This document shows positions 4,470 through 15,183 of a stretch of DNA of 64,000 nucleotides, piece after piece (position 1 is the stretch's first letter; each line of letters opens with the position of its first letter). The translations under genes and the position numbers were made by a program. The notes beneath the pieces were generated by a model that was given only the letters and a program-made list of their open reading frames with translations, ran no database searches and was not told where the DNA came from. Location: assembly GCF_000284595.1 (NCBI RefSeq), contig NC_017671.1, forward strand, positions 3,877,001 through 3,941,000, given 5' to 3'. Source of the stretch: Stenotrophomonas maltophilia D457 (GTDB taxonomy: Bacteria; Pseudomonadota; Gammaproteobacteria; Xanthomonadales; Xanthomonadaceae).

Positions 4470-5429
4470 TCAACGCATGCGGTTGCTGGTGGTCACCAGG
4501 TCGTTGTAGGCATCCAGGATCGTCGACTGCGCGCCCTCAGGATCGGTGGTGAGCCAGCTGCCCGACGCCTTGCGCTCGGCGGCCAACGCATCGGCGGTGA
4601 TCGGCTTGCCCTGCTCCAGACGCTCGACACCGCGACCGGCGGTACGCACCAGCTTGTCGGCCGAACGCTGCACATGACCCCACATCGGGTCGTCCTTGCC
4701 GACACCACTGTTCTGGACTTCCGTCACCAGCGCCTGATAGTCGGCCAGCTGGCCGCGCAACGCCGCAACGTCCGGTGCGTCGCTCTGGAACGCCATCGCC
4801 AGCTGCTTGCCATCGCCGACAAGGCGCAGGGGGGAATAATAGGCCAGCGAGCGGCCTTCGCTTTCCTCGATCTGCTTCAGCTGGGCGGCGCGGCGATCGT
4901 TCTCGTTCTTTTCCAGCGCAGCATCCATCGCTTCGCTGGCCTTGAAGAAATCAGCATAGGCCTGCATCAGCGGGGTATGCTGGCTGCGCATCCCTTCGCC
5001 ACCATCGCGACGATAGTCCTCGCGGGTGAAGTACCCATCGGCACGCTCGATCAGGGTGTTCAGTGCCTGGAATGCCCGCTGGTACTGTCGCGCTGGTGCA
5101 TCCAGCGGCGTGGCAGGGGTCTTTGCCAGCGCATCGGTCAGCGGCTGGCCGCAATAGTCGACCCGGTGCGACAACAGCTTGCCGGGTGAACGCGGCTGAG
5201 CTTCCTTGCCGGTCGGGCCGGCCTGGGGATCCTTCATCCAGCCCGTATAGGTCTGGAAACCCTCGCGGATGGGCTGTTCAACGCCGTTGTAACACTCGAT
5301 GTAGGCGTTCACCTTCCCCAGCCCGGGGTCGGCGACCGCCAGCCCCGCCGGGTTGTTGCAGCCGGCCAGCGCGCCAAGCAGGAGAACGGGAATCAGGCGT
5401 GTGGATGCGTTCAAATCAGTTCCTTGCAC
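4470..5429 (-). CDS. DUF3829-type lipoprotein
   Basis: A 319-residue lipoprotein with signal and lipobox LLLGALAGC, so anchored at Cys after processing. The mature part is helical, with a GKVNAYIECYN motif and two cysteines (one in the YIECYNG segment, one in VDYCGQPL). It resembles the DUF3829/YiiG family, whose function is unknown. It is a paralog of the next gene at 5570-6562: both share NAYIxCxN, a YTxWxKDxxAGPxGxExQ segment and the same helical layout. The two are tandem on the same strand, 140 bp apart. No enzyme motif is visible. Confidence 0.75.
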   Translation of the reverse strand: MQGTDLNASTRLIPVLLLGALAGCNNPAGLAVADPGLGKVNAYIECYNGVEQPIREGFQTYTGWMKDPQAGPTGKEAQPRSPGKLLSHRVDYCGQPLTDALAKTPATPLDAPARQYQRAFQALNTLIERADGYFTREDYRRDGGEGMRSQHTPLMQAYADFFKASEAMDAALEKNENDRRAAQLKQIEESEGRSLAYYSPLRLVGDGKQLAMAFQSDAPDVAALRGQLADYQALVTEVQNSGVGKDDPMWGHVQRSADKLVRTAGRGVERLEQGKPITADALAAERKASGSWLTTDPEGAQSTILDAYNDLVTTSNRMR

Positions 5430-5569: not shown

Positions 5570-6562
5570 CTACTGGCGGTTGCTCTGGAAAACCAGCGAG
5601 TTGTATTCCTGCATCAGCTTGTTGGCGGAGCCACGCGGCGCCATCGAGGGCGAATCCAGCATGCGTCGTTCGAAATCGCTGTAAGGCTTTTTCTCGCCGA
5701 CGCGCTGCAGCCGCTCCTTGCCTTCGCGACGGAAGTTCTCGGCTTCACGCTCGAAGCTGTTCCAGTCCAGCTTGCCCGGCTCCTGATCAGCCACCTTCGC
5801 ATGCGCTTCGTCGGAAATGCGGTTGAACGCATCCAGGCGCTCGCGCGCCTTGGCCTGATCGAAGTCATCCTCACTCATCAGATCCATGATGGCCTTGGCT
5901 TCCAGCATCATTGCCAGACGGTAGTACTCGCGCGTGCGTCCCTCGGCCTGTTCCAATACCTTGAGCTGCTCGCGCTGGGCGGCGTCGTTCTGGCGCTCCA
6001 GCTCGGCGTTGAACGTTTCGCTGGCAGTCACGAACTCCTTGAAGGCGGCCATCAAGGGCGCGTGCAGCTGCTTTCCCTTGGCGAACTGGTCGTCTTCGTA
6101 GTCCTGGCGATCGTAATAGTCGTGCGCGTCCTTGCTGAGCGGCACCAGTGCCTTCAGCGCCTGCTGGTAATGGCCAGCAGCGGCATCGAGCTCAGCCAGC
6201 GCCGGCTTGGCAGCCATCGCCTCGGTCACGGGGCCATCGCACTGCTTCATGTCGTAATCGCTGATCTCGAACGGACCGTACACCTGGGTCTCGCGCCCGC
6301 TCGGGCCGGCCTCGACGTCCTTGATCCAGCGCGTATAGGACTCGATGCTGCCGTGGGTCTTCGAATCAAGCGTGTTGAAGCAGCCGATGTAGGCGTTGAG
6401 CTTGGCGGTCAACTGCTGCTGTGCGTCGGACGGCGCCGCGCTGGCGTCGGGCGTGCTGGAAGGGCCGGCGTCGCCAGTGGTTGCCGGTGCCTTGCCGCCG
6501 CAGGCAGCCAGGACAATCGACAGCGAAGCGGCCAGCGCCGCGACGGAAAGAGTGCGTGACAT
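5570..6562 (-). CDS. DUF3829-type lipoprotein, paralog of its neighbour
   Basis: A 330-residue lipoprotein (signal MSRTLSVAALAASLSIVLAACG, lipid Cys in LAAC) with a Pro/Ser/Ala-rich linker after the lipid anchor and a long helical domain containing NAYIGCFN and YTRWIKDVEAGPSGRE. Same family as the preceding entry; the pair looks like an old tandem duplication. The start at MSRTL was chosen because it begins the signal peptide; an AAGGA lies 9 bases upstream. Role unknown, probably periplasmic face of a membrane. Confidence 0.75.
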   Translation of the reverse strand: MSRTLSVAALAASLSIVLAACGGKAPATTGDAGPSSTPDASAAPSDAQQQLTAKLNAYIGCFNTLDSKTHGSIESYTRWIKDVEAGPSGRETQVYGPFEISDYDMKQCDGPVTEAMAAKPALAELDAAAGHYQQALKALVPLSKDAHDYYDRQDYEDDQFAKGKQLHAPLMAAFKEFVTASETFNAELERQNDAAQREQLKVLEQAEGRTREYYRLAMMLEAKAIMDLMSEDDFDQAKARERLDAFNRISDEAHAKVADQEPGKLDWNSFEREAENFRREGKERLQRVGEKKPYSDFERRMLDSPSMAPRGSANKLMQEYNSLVFQSNRQ

Positions 6563-6655
6563 GGGTTCACGTCCTTGTTGAAAACGATTACAGCCGCGCA
6601 TTCTAGCGCAGCAGGCCGAAGGTCGCAGCCCTCGGCCTCTGCCGGCGACGCGCGA

Positions 6656-8421: not shown

Positions 8422-8928
8422 TCAACGGGATCGCTGATAGAAGGAGTCAGTCGTCAGCCGACTTTCAATTACCGATCGAACATAGGCAGCCCGCGCCTTG
8501 CGGGACTGCGAGTATTCGGCAAAAATCGTCATTGCTTCGGACCTCATCTCAGTGCCGCCGGTGGTCGTAAATACGAAAAATGAAGGCTCAAGATAACCAA
8601 CAGTCTCTCGCATAAACCGCTTGCACTCATCAAGCGGAAAATCTGCGGCGTAGTCCGCCCAATCGATATAGCGCCTCCAGAAAGCAGGCGCCCCCCATTC
8701 CCCGCATCTCTCATCAACAAAGAGCTTCAACTCAGAGAGCATGTCGGCGCATGCATCTACAGTTTCATCATCTAAATCCAGCGAAGCAACGCGACCGGGA
8801 TCAACCGCCTGCCAACAAAAAACCATAAAATCCGCAACAAAGCTCTCTTCACAGCCCTCGAAGAAATTACTCTTGTACCAGGCAAGAGTTTTCGCCACAT
8901 CAGTCAATTCATCAGAATCAATCATCAT
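8422..8928 (-). CDS. Probable immunity protein for the Rhs tip
   Basis: A 168-residue acidic, Cys-containing, leaderless (so cytoplasmic) protein of no recognised family. Its ATG overlaps the stop of the tip gene as ATGA, with AAGGTAAG just upstream, so its translation is probably coupled to that of the tip. Base composition is visibly lower in GC than neighbouring housekeeping genes, as is common in variable toxin/immunity ends. Position directly after the variable C-terminal end of an Rhs-core protein is the standard place for an immunity gene. The function is inferred from context only. Confidence 0.6.
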   Translation of the reverse strand: MMIDSDELTDVAKTLAWYKSNFFEGCEESFVADFMVFCWQAVDPGRVASLDLDDETVDACADMLSELKLFVDERCGEWGAPAFWRRYIDWADYAADFPLDECKRFMRETVGYLEPSFFVFTTTGGTEMRSEAMTIFAEYSQSRKARAAYVRSVIESRLTTDSFYQRSR

Positions 8929-9941
8929 CTTACCTTTCCGGCGGCATTAACGCCTGCGTTGACTATCTCACCATTCCGCACATGAACCCAAACCTGCGCC
9001 CCTCCCCTCATCGTCTGAGTGTACGTACTGACACCGGCAGAGGCTGCATCTTGCGTCATTAGCCGCGCGGCAACCGCATCCACCCTTAGGTTCGCCGGGT
9101 TTGAGCTGACACGCTGGAAAAGACCAACAAATCTCATTTGTGAAGCAACCGTAGTGGGATTCACATGCCCTGCGGCGCTTCTAAATACATGCTCTGCTCG
9201 TACCGCAAAATTGAATCGAGCAAGCATTGGAATTGCAGCAGGAACAGAAGCCAGCCCTCCGCCGCCCCGCGAGTACATTGCGGGTATCGCGATATCATGA
9301 AAAAGGGCACCGACGTCAAAGATGTTTCCATTCTTTGTCAAATCTCCCGACAAGCCAAGACGCGACTTTATCTCTTGCCAGTTGGAGTTTGATTCTCCGC
9401 CAGATGCCACGCTCGGAGATGAGCCAGAGGATGGCGCCCTCGGAATCGCGGAGTCAGATGATGTCGGCCCAGTGGCCGTCGTGTTCCCACCGGTACTCTT
9501 ACAAGTACCGTCACTATTCGTGATTCTAGAGCCAGTGCAGCGGCCATCTGGATCAACGAAAGTATAGGGGTTCAGTGCCGAATACATGTATCGATTAAAT
9601 AGGGCTCCGTTGTCCAAGCCCACGTCGACCGGATCTGTCGATAGGAATATCCCGACCAACGGATCGTAGTACCGCTGCTGCATGTACGTCAGACCCGTCG
9701 CCGAGTCCGACACATGCCCGGTGAATCCCGGGCGATCCCCCTTCGCATCACCTACGGTCGCACCATAGGGCTCATAAACGGTGCGCTCGACGATCGCGCC
9801 GTTGGCATCAGAGATGGCAACCGGGGAACCCAGCGCGTCGGTATGCACATACTGGACGATCTCCTGCGCCGAAACACTCACTGTGCCCAGCAACAGTCCC
9901 AACAGAACAGCGACACCAACCAGAATTTTCTTGATCTTCAT
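8925..9941 (-). CDS. Secreted Rhs-associated core protein with variable toxin-like tip
   Basis: A 338-residue protein with its own signal peptide (residues 1-25, cut near SVSA-QE), then the Rhs-associated core: YVHTDALGSPVAISD (31-45), YEPYG, GFTGH, GLTYMQQRYYDPLVGIFLS (83-101) and NPYTFVDPDGR (124-134). A Ser/Thr/Gly-rich linker (about 135-185) leads to a C-terminal domain (about 186-338) containing AEHVFRSAAGHVNP, GGAQVWVHVRNG and NAGVN. That domain is probably a toxin; its spacing of His residues faintly recalls BECR-type RNases, which is a guess. The gene starts 7 bp after the YD-repeat gene and overlaps the next gene by ATGA. Confidence 0.8.
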   Translation of the reverse strand: MKIKKILVGVAVLLGLLLGTVSVSAQEIVQYVHTDALGSPVAISDANGAIVERTVYEPYGATVGDAKGDRPGFTGHVSDSATGLTYMQQRYYDPLVGIFLSTDPVDVGLDNGALFNRYMYSALNPYTFVDPDGRCTGSRITNSDGTCKSTGGNTTATGPTSSDSAIPRAPSSGSSPSVASGGESNSNWQEIKSRLGLSGDLTKNGNIFDVGALFHDIAIPAMYSRGGGGLASVPAAIPMLARFNFAVRAEHVFRSAAGHVNPTTVASQMRFVGLFQRVSSNPANLRVDAVAARLMTQDAASAGVSTYTQTMRGGAQVWVHVRNGEIVNAGVNAAGKVR

Positions 9942-9948
9942 TTTCAGG

Positions 9949-12900
9949 TCACCGAGGGTTGGTCAGGTCGCCGTAATCCACAACGCTCTGCGGATACGGG
10001 TTGGACCAGGCTGAACAACCGCTGGCATTGCAGGCGCGCACAATCTGTACTTCCGCGCAGTAGACCGCGCCCTGAGCTTCGATTGAGCTCTCCGGACCGG
10101 AATACTCGAGCCTTCCGCCGTAGGCCATCATCTCGTAGTTGGTTGCACCCGGCATGCTGGTCCACTTCACCTCGCAGGAGATTTTGGTGGCGCGCCCTTC
10201 CTTCCATTGCGACTTGATGGAATGAATGAACTGCGGCGTACCCGGGGGCGGATTGGAAGCGACGACCACCGTGTTGGAGAAGTCACTGCAGCCAGAGATG
10301 TTGCATGCCCTTACGCGATAGGCGTAGTTGCCGAACACCAGACCATTGCGCTGCGACTGGGTCGAACCGTCGTTCTGGACCGCCGTCCAGGTTCCGCCAT
10401 TGACACTCTCATCCAGCAGGTAGCTGGCCGCCATGGCAACGCCCGTCCAATTCAACGTGACACTGCCCGACGAGGTTCCTGCGGGCGCACTCAGGCTGGG
10501 CGGTGCCGGTGGCCGGATCACTGAAACAACACTCGTCGCCGAGTACACGCCCCACCCCGCATCGTTGCCGGCCCGGACGCGGTAGGCATAGTTGCCGGTC
10601 CCCTTGCCACCGAATGCCTGACTGGTGCTGGCCAGTGAGGCAACCTGTGCCCATGCACCATTGTTGAAGCTCTCCTCCAGTGCATAGCGCAATGCGCCGT
10701 CGACGCTGCTCCACGCAATCGTATAGTTGCCATCGAGACTCTGCCCCGGCACGTTGAGCGAAGGTGCCGCTGCAGGCGGATAGATCACCTGGGTCCGGGC
10801 AACATCTGATTCAGGACCACAGCCCGCTGGGTTACAGCCAAAGACCCGGTACCCATACGTCCCGGCCGGCTTGCCGGAGACCGCGAGACTGCGCGCCGCG
10901 CTCTCCTGCACCGTCTGCCAGGCGCCCGCTCCCACCTGCTCCTGCAGGCGATAGGTTGCCGCGCCCGCCGCTTCCGTCCAAGTAATGCTGTAGCTGCCAT
11001 TGAATGCCGTTGCGGGCGCGCTTACAGCAGCCTTTGCCGCAGGAGGACGCTGCACCACGACACTGGCCGTCGCCGACCAGCCACTGCAGCTGTCCTGTTG
11101 GCAAGCGCGGACAGCATAGCCAAACGTTCCTTCCGCCTTCGCGGACGTGTTCCAGCTACGTTCGGCGCCGTTGTAGATCGTGGCCCAAGCTCCGCCAGCT
11201 GCCTGCTCTCGCAGTTCATAACGGCTGGCGTAAGACACCGCCGTCCACTGCAGTGCATAGGCACCGTTGTTGCTGAACGCGGGCGCGGTCAGGACCGGCG
11301 TAACCGGCGCGACGACCTGGATGGCCTGCGCCACCAGGCTGCCATTGAGGTGGATGTACTCGGTATTGCGGCCCTCCCGGGCATTTTCCTGCCGGCGCAG
11401 CACACCGTCGTTGCCGTACAGCGATCGAATGGTGGCACCGTCATTGGCGCCCGCCGACAGGATGCGCCGGCCATGTGCGTCGTATCGGTATCGCTCCGCG
11501 CTGGCCACACTGCGCAGGCGATTGCCGAAGTCGAAGCTGTAGCCGACGCCGTTGCGGCTGGAGAGGTTGCCCTGTGCGTCGTAGCTCAAGCCCAGAGTGG
11601 TGGCGCCTCCACTGTTCTGTACGTTGGTAAGCCGGTTATGGGTGTCGTACCAATAGACGTGATCCTTGACACCGGTCAGCGCGGCCGAACGCAGGTTGTC
11701 CACAGCATCGTAGGTGTAGCGGTACACGCCATCTCCGCCAAACGAAGGCGAGGTGGCCTGAATCAGACGATCCAGTCCGTCGTAGGCCATGGTGCGCGTG
11801 CGCTGCCCGTCCAGATTGTCGACGATACGCGCGACGTTGCCATTGGCGTCGTACTCATAGGTCGTGTCCAGCGCTCCGGCACTGTCGACCACCCGGGTAG
11901 GCAACTGGCGCTGGTTCTGCGCCATCGTGTGCACGATGCCATTGCCATAGGTGAATTGCTTCATGCCCCCATTGGCGTAGTAAGTCACCCCTGAGGCGTA
12001 GCCTCCCGCCTTGGTCGGCTGGCCCAGCGCGTTGGGCGCATAGTCAACGAAGCGCCCACTCGGATAGGTCAGGCCTGAAAGTGCGCCATTGGCGTTGTAG
12101 GCATATCCCAGCGACTGGATGCCGAGGGTACTGTCACTGGAGGTTTCGGCCGTCAACAACCCACGCTTGTTGTAGGTATAGGTGTTGATCGCCTGCGTCG
12201 TCCCCGCATCGTTTGCCGTGGTCACCGTGGCCGGCTTGCCGTCCCTTGTATACGTCCAGCCCTGGTTGCCATTCCCATCCGGGAACGCAAGTGTCGACAG
12301 CCGATTGCGCGCATCGTAGCCACGAACGATCCTGCGGGCCGCAACCGGTCCAGCATCAGCGTCGCATGCCGTGGTGCTGGAAAGGTCCAGGCCAGCTGCG
12401 CTCCAGGCAAGATTGCCCGCTGCGTCGTAACCCATCAGCGTTGCGCCGGTCTCCGGCTCCACACTCTTGCAGAGCTGCTGATGACCGTCATACACATAAT
12501 TGCGGGCAATCCGGGCGCTGCCGTCCTGGTTGCGGCGCACGATCGAGCGCGGCTTGCCGAAGATGTCGCGATCGATATCGGTGAACGCGCCCGCCGGGTG
12601 AATGATCGACACCGGGGATTCCGTCGACGGCGCACCGAACGCCTGGAAAGTGGTCAGCGTCGTATTGCCCTTGGGGTCGACCACTTTCAAGCCGCCACCC
12701 GCCAGATAACTGGTCAGCGATGTCAGCAGACCGGCCTCGCTGTCGACGGACACCGAGGTCTGCCGCCCCAGCGCGTCGTAGCCGGTCCATGTACCTGTAC
12801 TCAGCACAGCAGACTCGCCAGGGTGCGAGGCGAACACCTGCCGACCCGCTTCGTCGTAGGCAAACCTCTGGTAGCGCTGGGTCACGCCACGCGAGGACTC

Positions 12901-15183
12901 GTCATATTCCTCAGTCAGCAGCGGACGCCAGAAGGCATCGAAATAGACGTTGCGCCGCGCGTTTCCGGTTGCGACGGTCTGCCGCCAATGACCCGCTCCG
13001 ATACCGTACTCGTCGCCGTTGATGGCGGTGAAACTCTGTGTCGTACGTGCCCAAGCCACACTGTCGCCCGCCGGCCAGTCGATGGTGGCCATGCGTCCCA
13101 TTGCGTCATAGCCGTACTGGGTGGTTGCACCGTTCTCATCGGTAACGCTGCTGACCCAGCCATTGTCGTCCACCACCGCCGACTGCACAGCGCCGTCGGC
13201 AAACTGGATCTGCTGTGGCGTGCCGCGCTTCCAGCCGGAAAGCGTAGTGCGATTGCCACGACCGTCATCCACCATGGCCACGGTTCCGTCAGGGTTGTAG
13301 CCCAGTACCTGCTTCAACAACCCATACGAACGCACTTCCGTGGGCCGCATCAGGCCATCGAACGTCGTCTGCTCGACCACCACGCCGGTATTCTCGTTGG
13401 TGACCTTCGCGATCGCGCCCAGAATCCATCTGCTTCGGTCGTCCGCATACTGAGTGGCATCGGTGCGGCTGCCCAAAGGACTGGCGCTATTGACACGCAA
13501 CGGGCGAGCCAGATCATCGAACAACAATATGCTGGTCTGGTAGGTCACGCCATCCTGCTGGATGGCCTCGGCCACGACCGGCCGCACCTGAGCTGTGCTC
13601 GGCTCGTCGCCACTGTAGATCATCCCGTGAAGCGGGGCGAATGGCTGTGATTTCACTTCGTCTTCGGTCATGTAGACCGAGGTGCTGCTCTTGACCACAT
13701 TCCCGGCCGCGTCAATGACGCTGCTACCCAGCAGCCGCCCTTCATTCAGCGCGTACTGCGAGCCATAGCGGTAGGCCGTGCGGGTTCCGTCGGGATTTGA
13801 GATCGTGACCTGCTTTTCCTTCTTGCAGGTCGTGCAGGGGTAGATGGCTGCACCGCCCACGCCGCCCCAGAGCGGCTCGTAGCCGCTGCCATAGTCATAG
13901 CTCCACTGCAGCACCTTCGGCAGGCCCGGTCCCCAGATCTTCTTGGCTCTCAGCGAGACTACGTCGTAGAAAAACGGGGTGACGATTTCGTAGTAGTACG
14001 CCGACTGTGCGATCCGGCGGATGCACTCGCTGGCATGGACGCCACTGCGGTACTGGCGACCATTCGAAAACTGGAACTCACCCATCGCACCGGACGGATG
14101 CTTGATGGTCATGACCAGCGTACCGTCACGCTCCGGCGGCTGCTCCTGACAGGTCTCGTTGCTGTTGCCGTCCCAGTTCACCTTCTCCCAGGCGCGCAGC
14201 GCGCTGGAGTAGGCGTAGGACCAAGTGCTTCCATCGGGCTGGGTAACTGCGGTGAGGCGGTTCTGGCCTTCGACCTGACCGTAGCCATAGTTCCAGGTAC
14301 GGCCCGCGGCAGTCACCGACACCAGAAGCGTGCCGCTGTAGGCCAGCGTGATCTCGCGGCCATCGCTGGACCAGATCCGGGTCGGGTGACCGTTACCGTT
14401 GTACTCGTACTGTACCCAGTTGCCCGACCGGTCCTCTACACGGCTGGCCATGAGGTAGATGCGCGTGCGAGCGATCTTGGTCCTGTCTCCTTCGCCGCCC
14501 GAGCGCTCCAGCGTGCCGCCAAAGCGCGTGAACGCGGTATCGAAGAAGTACGACTCGCCCGAGGTGGTCCTGACCCGATAGCCCTCGCCAGCCAGACCCG
14601 ACTTCATTGGAATACAGTCGATGGCATCGCGATGCGAGGTGCTCCACTTGCGTGCAACGCCGTCTGTCGGCATCGGCGTGTTGTTCCAGGCCCCCAACAT
14701 GGTGCGATCACCACCACCCGGGACATGGATCATGTTGCCCTGCCAGACTTCGTTGAGCCGGAAGGAAATGGGCCACTGAGGCACCATGTCGCCACTGCAA
14801 CGATTGTTCAGCCAGGCGCTCGCGCCGGGGAACATGCCGGTGATGTACGGCGTGTCGACCTCCCAGCCGCCCACACCATCGAGACTGGCGTTGAAGCTGC
14901 CACTCCCGACCAGGTCCATCTCGACACTGAACCGGCGCCGCATCTGCACCGGCAGGGCGTTGTTGCCTGGCAGGCTGACGTCGGTGACGGCAAACTCAGT
15001 CTTGCCGTTGTAGAGGCTGACGCTCTCGCCGAAAAGATCATCCTTCAGCGCCGTCAGGTTCTGGGCGGACTCAATGAGCTTGCGGTATTCCTGGTAGGGC
15101 TCGACTGCCGAGACCGAACCTGCGACCACGCACAGCGTCAGTGCCGTAGCAACACGGCACTGCCAAGCAGCAACTCGCTTCAC
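9949..15183 (-). CDS. Large secreted YD-repeat (Rhs) protein with FN3-like modules
   Basis: A 1744-residue secreted protein with a GTG start preceded by GAGGGG and a signal peptide (to about residue 26, GSVSAVEP). Residues about 260-1250 carry many YD/Rhs repeats, for example YDAMGRMATIDW, YDARNRLSTLAF, YEYDANGNVARI and YRYDAHGRRI. From about 1290 to 1735 there are five FN3-like modules of about 90 residues, opening near PVLTAPAFS, PAAKAAVSAP, PAAAPSLNVP, PAPPSLSAP and PPPGTPQF. The Rhs-associated core normally following the repeats is absent here and is instead encoded by the next gene. It is probably a surface or exported shell protein; the export route beyond Sec is unknown. Confidence 0.88.
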   Translation of the reverse strand: MKRVAAWQCRVATALTLCVVAGSVSAVEPYQEYRKLIESAQNLTALKDDLFGESVSLYNGKTEFAVTDVSLPGNNALPVQMRRRFSVEMDLVGSGSFNASLDGVGGWEVDTPYITGMFPGASAWLNNRCSGDMVPQWPISFRLNEVWQGNMIHVPGGGDRTMLGAWNNTPMPTDGVARKWSTSHRDAIDCIPMKSGLAGEGYRVRTTSGESYFFDTAFTRFGGTLERSGGEGDRTKIARTRIYLMASRVEDRSGNWVQYEYNGNGHPTRIWSSDGREITLAYSGTLLVSVTAAGRTWNYGYGQVEGQNRLTAVTQPDGSTWSYAYSSALRAWEKVNWDGNSNETCQEQPPERDGTLVMTIKHPSGAMGEFQFSNGRQYRSGVHASECIRRIAQSAYYYEIVTPFFYDVVSLRAKKIWGPGLPKVLQWSYDYGSGYEPLWGGVGGAAIYPCTTCKKEKQVTISNPDGTRTAYRYGSQYALNEGRLLGSSVIDAAGNVVKSSTSVYMTEDEVKSQPFAPLHGMIYSGDEPSTAQVRPVVAEAIQQDGVTYQTSILLFDDLARPLRVNSASPLGSRTDATQYADDRSRWILGAIAKVTNENTGVVVEQTTFDGLMRPTEVRSYGLLKQVLGYNPDGTVAMVDDGRGNRTTLSGWKRGTPQQIQFADGAVQSAVVDDNGWVSSVTDENGATTQYGYDAMGRMATIDWPAGDSVAWARTTQSFTAINGDEYGIGAGHWRQTVATGNARRNVYFDAFWRPLLTEEYDESSRGVTQRYQRFAYDEAGRQVFASHPGESAVLSTGTWTGYDALGRQTSVSVDSEAGLLTSLTSYLAGGGLKVVDPKGNTTLTTFQAFGAPSTESPVSIIHPAGAFTDIDRDIFGKPRSIVRRNQDGSARIARNYVYDGHQQLCKSVEPETGATLMGYDAAGNLAWSAAGLDLSSTTACDADAGPVAARRIVRGYDARNRLSTLAFPDGNGNQGWTYTRDGKPATVTTANDAGTTQAINTYTYNKRGLLTAETSSDSTLGIQSLGYAYNANGALSGLTYPSGRFVDYAPNALGQPTKAGGYASGVTYYANGGMKQFTYGNGIVHTMAQNQRQLPTRVVDSAGALDTTYEYDANGNVARIVDNLDGQRTRTMAYDGLDRLIQATSPSFGGDGVYRYTYDAVDNLRSAALTGVKDHVYWYDTHNRLTNVQNSGGATTLGLSYDAQGNLSSRNGVGYSFDFGNRLRSVASAERYRYDAHGRRILSAGANDGATIRSLYGNDGVLRRQENAREGRNTEYIHLNGSLVAQAIQVVAPVTPVLTAPAFSNNGAYALQWTAVSYASRYELREQAAGGAWATIYNGAERSWNTSAKAEGTFGYAVRACQQDSCSGWSATASVVVQRPPAAKAAVSAPATAFNGSYSITWTEAAGAATYRLQEQVGAGAWQTVQESAARSLAVSGKPAGTYGYRVFGCNPAGCGPESDVARTQVIYPPAAAPSLNVPGQSLDGNYTIAWSSVDGALRYALEESFNNGAWAQVASLASTSQAFGGKGTGNYAYRVRAGNDAGWGVYSATSVVSVIRPPAPPSLSAPAGTSSGSVTLNWTGVAMAASYLLDESVNGGTWTAVQNDGSTQSQRNGLVFGNYAYRVRACNISGCSDFSNTVVVASNPPPGTPQFIHSIKSQWKEGRATKISCEVKWTSMPGATNYEMMAYGGRLEYSGPESSIEAQGAVYCAEVQIVRACNASGCSAWSNPYPQSVVDYGDLTNPR

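What the first reader, a model, noticed from the sequence alone, without database searches (positions are those of the whole stretch)
8422..15183. Rhs system split in three coupled genes: secreted YD/FN3 shell, separately secreted Rhs-core tip, immunity-like gene
In a canonical Rhs protein the YD repeats, the Rhs-associated core and the variable toxin are one chain. Here the 1744-residue protein ends after YD repeats and FN3 modules, and the Rhs-associated core begins a second protein with its own signal peptide, 7 bp downstream. A third gene overlaps the tip by ATGA. Two independent Sec signals imply that both parts are exported and perhaps reassemble outside the cytoplasm.
Basis: partly seen in the sequence, partly recalled or inferred. 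Interest (0 to 1): 0.78.

Follow-up and report, generated by a model that had tools for sequence, protein, structure and literature searches.

The report
Two-part secreted Rhs toxin system
In this Stenotrophomonas genome a toxin that bacteria usually make as one giant protein is encoded as a separate container and a separate toxin-bearing plug, each with its own predicted export signal, and relatives show that the division is conserved and that different toxin plugs go with similar containers.

Summary
A 1744-aa shell (Sec signal, YD repeats, Ig/FN3-like tail) is followed after 7 bp by a 338-aa tip (Sec signal, Rhs-associated core, unassigned C-terminus) and, overlapping by ATGA, a 168-aa immunity-like gene. 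It is not a broken gene: among fetched relatives, 50 of 55 shells ending before the core have a core gene next on the same strand, 48 of them with a predicted signal peptide. The same YD protein is cut at four recurrent places. Near-identical cores carry unrelated C-termini and unrelated next genes, as in polymorphic toxins. Some genomes have several tips and one shell; 16 of 38 tip-bearing genus genomes show no full shell. The closest studied case is the Xanthomonas perforans bacteriocin Bcn-A, whose ORFA and signal-peptide-bearing ORF4 fit shell and tip; both are required, and activity needs type II secretion. Its authors took ORFA as the toxin; I read ORF4 as the toxin. Assembly of the chains after export is inferred; neither structure prediction tested it. 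New variant of a known kind.

The parts
9949..15183 (-). Shell gene, 1744 aa, GTG start: Sec signal, front region, YD-repeat barrel, Ig/FN3-like tail; no Rhs core found
15106..15183 (-). Shell signal peptide (about residues 1-26)
   Evidence: heuristic
11326..15045 (-). Front plus rear YD region (about residues 47-1286), the part shared with one-chain relatives
   Evidence: home-made profiles
9952..11325 (-). Ig/FN3-like tail, 458 aa; a tail of at least 97 aa is present in 49 of 50 shells that are followed by a tip
8925..9941 (-). Tip gene, 338 aa: Sec signal, Rhs-associated core, variable C-terminus
9867..9941 (-). Tip signal peptide (about residues 1-25)
   Evidence: heuristic
9540..9857 (-). 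Rhs-associated core (about residues 29-134) with the two conserved Asp motifs (DP and DPDG)
8928..9539 (-). Variable C-terminus, presumed toxin; residues 184-338 match no Pfam family
8422..8928 (-). Immunity-like gene, 168 aa, overlapping the tip by ATGA

Best explanation
This is an antibacterial Rhs (YD-repeat) polymorphic toxin whose container and toxin-bearing plug are separate Sec-exported proteins. Shown here: the architecture, its conservation, and cassette-like variation of the toxin end and the next gene. Taken from published work on the related bacteriocin Bcn-A: both large genes are needed and activity depends on the type II secretion system. Inferred: both chains cross the inner membrane unfolded; the tip's core closes the open end of the YD barrel in the periplasm; the Ig/FN3 tail helps join or display the two chains; the complex leaves by type II secretion; and the third gene protects the producer and its siblings. 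Separate genes would let similar shells be armed with different tips.
For: (1) Recurrent split with signal peptides: of 103 N-terminal pieces, 55 end before the core, 28 at or within the front region (2 of these are fragments), 10 and 3 at two places inside the barrel, 6 are one chain, 1 other. Following pieces carry a signal peptide in 48 of 50, 16 of 20, 10 of 10 and 3 of 3. (2) A natural one-chain form, L180, has shell, Ig/FN3-like modules and core in one ORF. (3) Polymorphic-toxin pattern: 365 of 401 close-core pairs with unrelated C-termini; next genes related in 59 of 116 pairs with related C-termini but 2 of 9793 with unrelated ones. (4) Of 45 tips scanned (of 63 listed), members match Peptidase_M91 (2), M23, Tox-GHH, Ntox50, GH-E, Tox-REase-7, Ntox10 and HNH (1 each). 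(5) Shell and core distances correlate in 50 neighbouring pairs (r 0.50; 0 of 5000 permutations as high), and in the 18 Stenotrophomonas and 15 Xanthomonas pairs alone. (6) Bcn-A: ORFA (1398 aa), ORF2 and ORF4 (290 aa, signal peptide, some identity to WapA and RhsA) are required, ORF5 is immunity, activity is in the supernatant and is lost in an xpsD mutant (PMC7259588). The printed primer at the end of ORFA translates to LYQLLL, found at the end of 10 of 11 short-tailed Xanthomonas shells. Two printed ORF4 stretches match just behind the core of one tip (43% identity, E=0.009, 1 of 20 genomes). (7) The genome has two type II secretins over cut-off and no VipA match.
Against: No interaction between the chains was measured or successfully modelled. 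16 of 38 genus genomes with a complete signal-peptide tip have no full shell by my list. Of 114 core-only ORFs in the fetched genus loci, 96 are not counted as next to a shell (at least two of these, in L108 and L062, do follow a shell that is interrupted or cut). The Arg of the core GRF motif is kept in only 40 of 116 parsed tips (33 of 149 not parsed) and is Ile in the window, so core cleavage may differ. Bcn-A also needs ORF2, a small protein; no relative of the small secreted proteins found at Xanthomonas loci was seen in the window. Toxicity and immunity in the window are untested. Co-variation of shell and core is partly shared ancestry.
Confidence: 0.65

Rival explanations
1. The tip is a self-sufficient secreted toxin that kept an Rhs core as a relic; the shell is a separate adhesin or an older toxin remnant.
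For: 16 of 38 genus genomes with complete signal-peptide tips have no full shell by my list, and several genomes hold more tips than shells, e.g. 5 tips in G060 and 6 in G033 (shells).
Against: Bcn-A needs both ORFA and ORF4 (PMC7259588). Tips next to a shell have a complete core in 18 of 18, others in 61 of 96, as expected if orphans decay. Cores and shells co-vary and L180 joins them in one chain.
Confidence: 0.18
2. The system works like the TcB/TcC halves of a Tc toxin: two chains assemble into one YD cocoon before leaving the cytoplasm.
For: Rhs cores of TccC3 and YenC2 are among the PDB matches of the tip; the two-chain logic is the same.
Against: Both chains here have predicted Sec signals, so assembly in the cytoplasm is unlikely. 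TcB/TcC being cut elsewhere and lacking Sec signals is recalled. TcA was not searched for.
Confidence: 0.1
3. A once continuous gene was broken by a frameshift or insertion and the pieces are decaying.
For: One-chain relatives exist (6 of 103); some tips and shells elsewhere are interrupted.
Against: The split and the signal peptide are conserved across species, with Ig/FN3-like tails on 49 of 50 shells at this junction (length).
Confidence: 0.03

Closest known systems
Bacteriocin Bcn-A of Xanthomonas perforans (Marutani-Hert et al. 2020, PMC7259588)
   Same: Large YD protein, separate Rhs-like protein with signal peptide, immunity gene last; both large genes required; end of the YD protein (from the printed primer) like the short-tailed Xanthomonas shells found here.
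   Different: Bcn-A has two small genes (ORF2, ORF3) between the large ones and, judged from its length, only a short tail; the window has a 7-bp gap and a 458-aa tail. Its authors take ORFA as the toxin; I read ORF4 as the toxin.
WapA of Gram-positive bacteria (Streptococcus suis, PMC12704120; passages and one section seen)
   Same: YD barrel exported by Sec, variable C-terminal toxin, core modelled as sealing the barrel.
   Different: One gene; pieces arise by autocleavage; anchored in the cell wall.
TcB-TcC cocoon of Tc toxins (4o9x, 4igl, 6h6e)
   Same: Two-chain YD cocoon with core and toxin on the second chain (recalled); core matches by sequence.
   Different: No Sec signals, another cut place and delivery by TcA (all recalled, not tested).
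Type VI secretion Rhs effectors (7q97, 8h8a, 8cp6)
   Same: Core matches by sequence; polymorphic C-terminus.
   Different: One-chain and T6SS-delivered (recalled); here two chains with Sec signals and no VipA match in the genome.

Membership tests
Rhs/YD-repeat polymorphic toxins | YD repeats plus Rhs-associated core | tested here: met
   PF05593 in the shell, TIGR03696 in the tip, but on two chains
Rhs/YD-repeat polymorphic toxins | Conserved carrier with exchangeable C-terminus and co-varying next gene | tested here: met
Rhs/YD-repeat polymorphic toxins | YD repeats, core and toxin in one polypeptide | tested here: not met
Rhs/YD-repeat polymorphic toxins | Conserved Asp residues of the core (protease role recalled) | tested here: met
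   Asp in all parsed motifs: 116 of 149 and 108 of 149 tips parsed; invariant at D103, D130 and D132 in 45 rows. The GRF Arg is not kept in the window
Rhs/YD-repeat polymorphic toxins | Toxic C-terminus neutralised by the next gene | not testable with these tools
   needs an assay; C-terminus has no family
Bcn-A type bacteriocin | Separate YD protein and signal-peptide Rhs-like protein, immunity gene last | tested here: met
   layout in the window against the paper
Bcn-A type bacteriocin | Small genes (ORF2, ORF3) between the two | tested here: not met
   7-bp gap; no window ORF matches the small secreted proteins of Xanthomonas loci
Bcn-A type bacteriocin | Sequence kinship of shell and tip with ORFA and ORF4 | tested here: inconclusive
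   only the translated primer and two printed ORF4 stretches could be compared
Bcn-A type bacteriocin | Activity depends on the type II system | not testable with these tools
   type II secretins present; no experiment
Tc toxin TcB/TcC | TcA partner | not tested
   no search was made
T6SS Rhs effector | T6SS in the genome | tested here: not met
   no PF05591 (VipA) match in the genome; other T6SS parts not searched
T6SS Rhs effector | PAAR domain on the Rhs protein | tested here: not met
   no PAAR in the Pfam scan of the three proteins

The most novel reading that the evidence does not exclude
A YD cocoon can be built outside the cytoplasm from two or three separately exported chains, cut at a few permitted places with Ig/FN3-like modules at several of the cuts, so that one shell gene serves an array of interchangeable toxin plugs.
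Probability: 0.45. Interest if true: 0.82.

Novelty: new variant of a known kind. Interest (0 to 1): 0.64.

Why it matters
It would give a published bacteriocin a new reading, show that YD cocoons can form from separately exported chains, and give Rhs toxins a route out without a type VI system. Separate chains also make it testable how a cocoon is loaded and closed, because container and plug can be made apart.

Tried and rejected
Gene breakage: rejected for this junction. Type VI delivery: made unlikely for this genome (no VipA; no PAAR).

Toxin class: the last 155 residues of the window tip gave no Pfam family at E up to 10, and 5 of 326 family genomes, its own included, had a match. The AlphaFold model of the tip has mean pLDDT 50 and pTM 0.25, so no fold search was run on it. 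AlphaFold of an L180 fragment modelled barrel and Ig/FN3-like modules (mean pLDDT 80) but the core only at 22-38; none of the 42 other rows filled more than 50 of 100 core columns, so the docking test is void, neither for nor against. The fold search of that model was not accepted and not repeated.

Bcn-A primers: no held locus matched the set closely, so no held genome was shown to be X. perforans.

Limits. The signal-peptide score is home-made, not SignalP; it also accepts 51 of 142 genes after a tip. Shares of architectures are not unbiased: loci were drawn by likeness to the tip core or shell front. Before the count of 103, 15 pieces cut by a locus end and pieces whose front match begins after profile position 20 were dropped; that drops, for example, the L108 shell, which has an in-frame stop. 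Of the four front-rear cases without a signal, two pair a second, farther front gene with a rear whose nearer front was also counted, and L258 looks like a signal by eye. In one search tips were counted only in fetched loci, and the list of 22 shell-bearing genomes includes G007 (interrupted shell), G076 (shell in two pieces) and G030 (shell cut by the stretch fetched); some of the 16 others have shell pieces, e.g. G003. Before the tree, 8 of 107 rows were dropped; it is a quick tree without bootstrap.
Full report
Observation. The three ORFs are where the finding puts them, on the minus strand: shell 15183-9949, 1744 aa; tip 9941-8925, 338 aa, after 7 bp; third gene 8928-8422, 168 aa, overlapping by ATGA. 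The shell carries RHS repeats and an Ig/FN3-like tail; the Rhs-associated core is in the tip. Both leaders pass a home-made signal-peptide score. G+C falls along the locus: shell 62.7%, signal plus core 56.4%, C-terminus 54.5%, third gene 50.1%; window 66.4%.

Where it lies. The same genome holds four more complete signal-peptide tips (5 in all), a core on a 1314-aa open frame behind a 906-aa front gene, and two weak core matches on open frames of 1583 and 1588 aa.

Not a broken gene. In the genus, 78 of 91 genomes have a core match of some kind and 46 of 91 a shell-front match of some kind. After removal of duplicates, 149 tips with a complete core were held; 137 pass the signal score, against 199 of 1500 unrelated ORFs over leaders of the same lengths, 756 of 4654 over 60 aa, and 51 of 142 genes that follow a tip. 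In a first, smaller set 39 of 143 tips had a shell of 1200 aa or more within 60 bp upstream, 17 of them overlapping by 4 bp. The nearest shells to the window's are split too.

The cut recurs. Profiles of shell front, shell rear and core sorted 103 N-terminal pieces: 55 end before the core, 28 at or within the front (2 are fragments), 3 at rear position about 223, 10 at about 317, 6 are one chain, 1 is other. Of the 55, 50 have a core gene next on the same strand within 3 kb; the other five are the array shells below. In 11 of the 50, all Xanthomonas, 593-1630 bp lie between. Following pieces have a signal peptide in 48 of 50, 16 of 20, 3 of 3 and 10 of 10, upstream pieces in 52 of 55, 25 of 28, 3 of 3 and 10 of 10. 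Some loci have front, rear and tip apart (L258, L261, L270, L062, L195; in L225 no tip was seen). Rear genes at the inner cuts can begin with Ig-like modules (N_BRCA1_IG in L050 and L219). Shells cut before the core have a tail of at least 97 aa in 49 of 50 pairs; the exception, L202, has about 100 extra residues on its tips, Ig-like only by eye. On a quick tree of 99 rear regions the before-core state needs 15 changes, at least 11 forced by starred branches; gain and loss cannot be told apart.

A one-chain counterpart. L180 (2184 aa) has shell, about 585 residues of Ig/FN3-like modules and then the core in one ORF. It suggests that the three belong to one machine.

Arrays and orphans. In G060, G083, G033, G031 and G015, tips or tip remnants lie upstream of a shell of 1864-1879 aa with no core gene found after it in the fetched stretch. 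Of 114 core-only ORFs in the fetched genus loci, 18 were counted as next to a shell, all 18 with complete core; of the other 96, 61 have it. Of 38 genus genomes with a complete signal-peptide tip in the fetched loci, 22 have a shell by my list and 16 do not. Of 99 tips not next to a complete shell, 66 have a core at least 80% identical to a shell-side tip. Orphans may be decaying reservoirs, or tips that act without a shell; this is the main fact against an obligatory pair.

Polymorphic toxin. C-termini of 147 tips fall into 73 clusters. Of 401 pairs with cores at least 85% identical, 365 have C-termini not related over half their length (21 share a short match); both next genes are held for 326 of these and none are related. 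Where C-termini are related the next gene is related in 59 of 116 pairs; where not, in 2 of 9793. Of 45 tips scanned (of 63 listed), eight toxin-type Pfam families gave nine member matches, which may overlap. The window's own C-terminus is unassigned.

Core. Both Asp motifs are kept wherever parsed (116 and 108 of 149 tips), but the Arg of the GRF motif is kept in 40 of 116 and is Ile in the window.

Co-variation. Shell and core distances correlate in 50 neighbouring pairs (r 0.50), the 18 Stenotrophomonas pairs (0.46) and the 15 Xanthomonas pairs (0.52), each with 0 of 5000 permutations as high; with rear and core in one ORF r is 0.74 (35 rows). Shared ancestry contributes.

The published case. 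In X. perforans, mutants of ORFA (1398 aa, YD repeats), ORF2 or ORF4 (290 aa, signal peptide, some identity to WapA and RhsA) lose Bcn-A activity and an ORF3 mutant has less; ORF5 gives immunity; activity was in the supernatant and not the cell fraction, and was absent when the genes were expressed in an xpsD mutant of X. euvesicatoria (PMC7259588: abstract and outline, first of three parts of Results, first of two parts of Discussion, and passages). Genus g7 is taken as Xanthomonas because G387 C11 has the length of the X. bonasiae record of L129 (652138 bases). There, 11 shells of 1386-1441 aa (L143 included) have a tail of 97-98 aa, 10 of the 11 ending with LYQLLL, as do three rear genes of shells cut in two; six other shells have long tails and other ends. 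Small secreted proteins lie between many of these shells and their tips. The primer printed for the end of ORFA translates to LYQLLL. So ORFA is very probably a shell and ORF4 a tip. The authors proposed that ORFA is the toxin and that ORF2 and ORF4 act in delivery and processing. A review lists Bcn-A and glycinecin R as Rhs-containing (PMC11639067, passages); no primary paper on glycinecin R was listed. S. suis WapA is a Sec-exported YD protein that is cleaved into pieces, with the core modelled as the seal (PMC12704120, passages and one section).

Searches for print. Nine searches, whose listings were capped at up to 20 papers, listed no paper that by title or abstract start describes shell and core as separately exported halves. 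The library holds open-licence PMC papers only.

What failed. The tip model is poor, and the L180 model says nothing on docking. The link to type II secretion in this genome rests on two secretins and on Bcn-A.

Noticed in passing
L258, L261, L270, L062, L195 (and L225 without a tip seen): The shell itself is cut again, giving front, rear and tip as separate genes.
   Followed up: partly
31 loci, mostly Xanthomonas with some duplicates, e.g. L143:9025-9828, L203:6801-9448: One to six small, often signal-peptide-bearing proteins, mostly between shell and tip, where Bcn-A has ORF2 and ORF3. Function unknown.
   Followed up: partly
G060, G083, G033, G031, G015 (L121/L212, L122/L213, L072/L214, L215, L216): Tips or tip remnants upstream of a single shell, the reverse of the window's order.
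   Followed up: partly
window tip core, about residues 97-99 (9653-9645), and other tips: The Arg of the core GRF motif is replaced in most parsed tips (R in 40 of 116; Ile in the window) while both Asp motifs are kept.
   Followed up: partly
genes after the tip at 142 loci: 51 of 142 look signal-peptide-like, which may mean periplasmic or lipoprotein immunity for some toxins.
   Followed up: no
window 4470-5429 and 5570-6601, minus strand: Two neighbouring, similar-looking lipoproteins, perhaps paralogues.
   Followed up: no
own genome near 2.72 Mb and 4.48 Mb: Two long YD proteins (open frames 1583 and 1588 aa) with weak core matches, although no VipA was found.
   Followed up: no
L051/L127 (G033): The closest relative of the window tip ends early at 140 aa; described only.
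   Followed up: no
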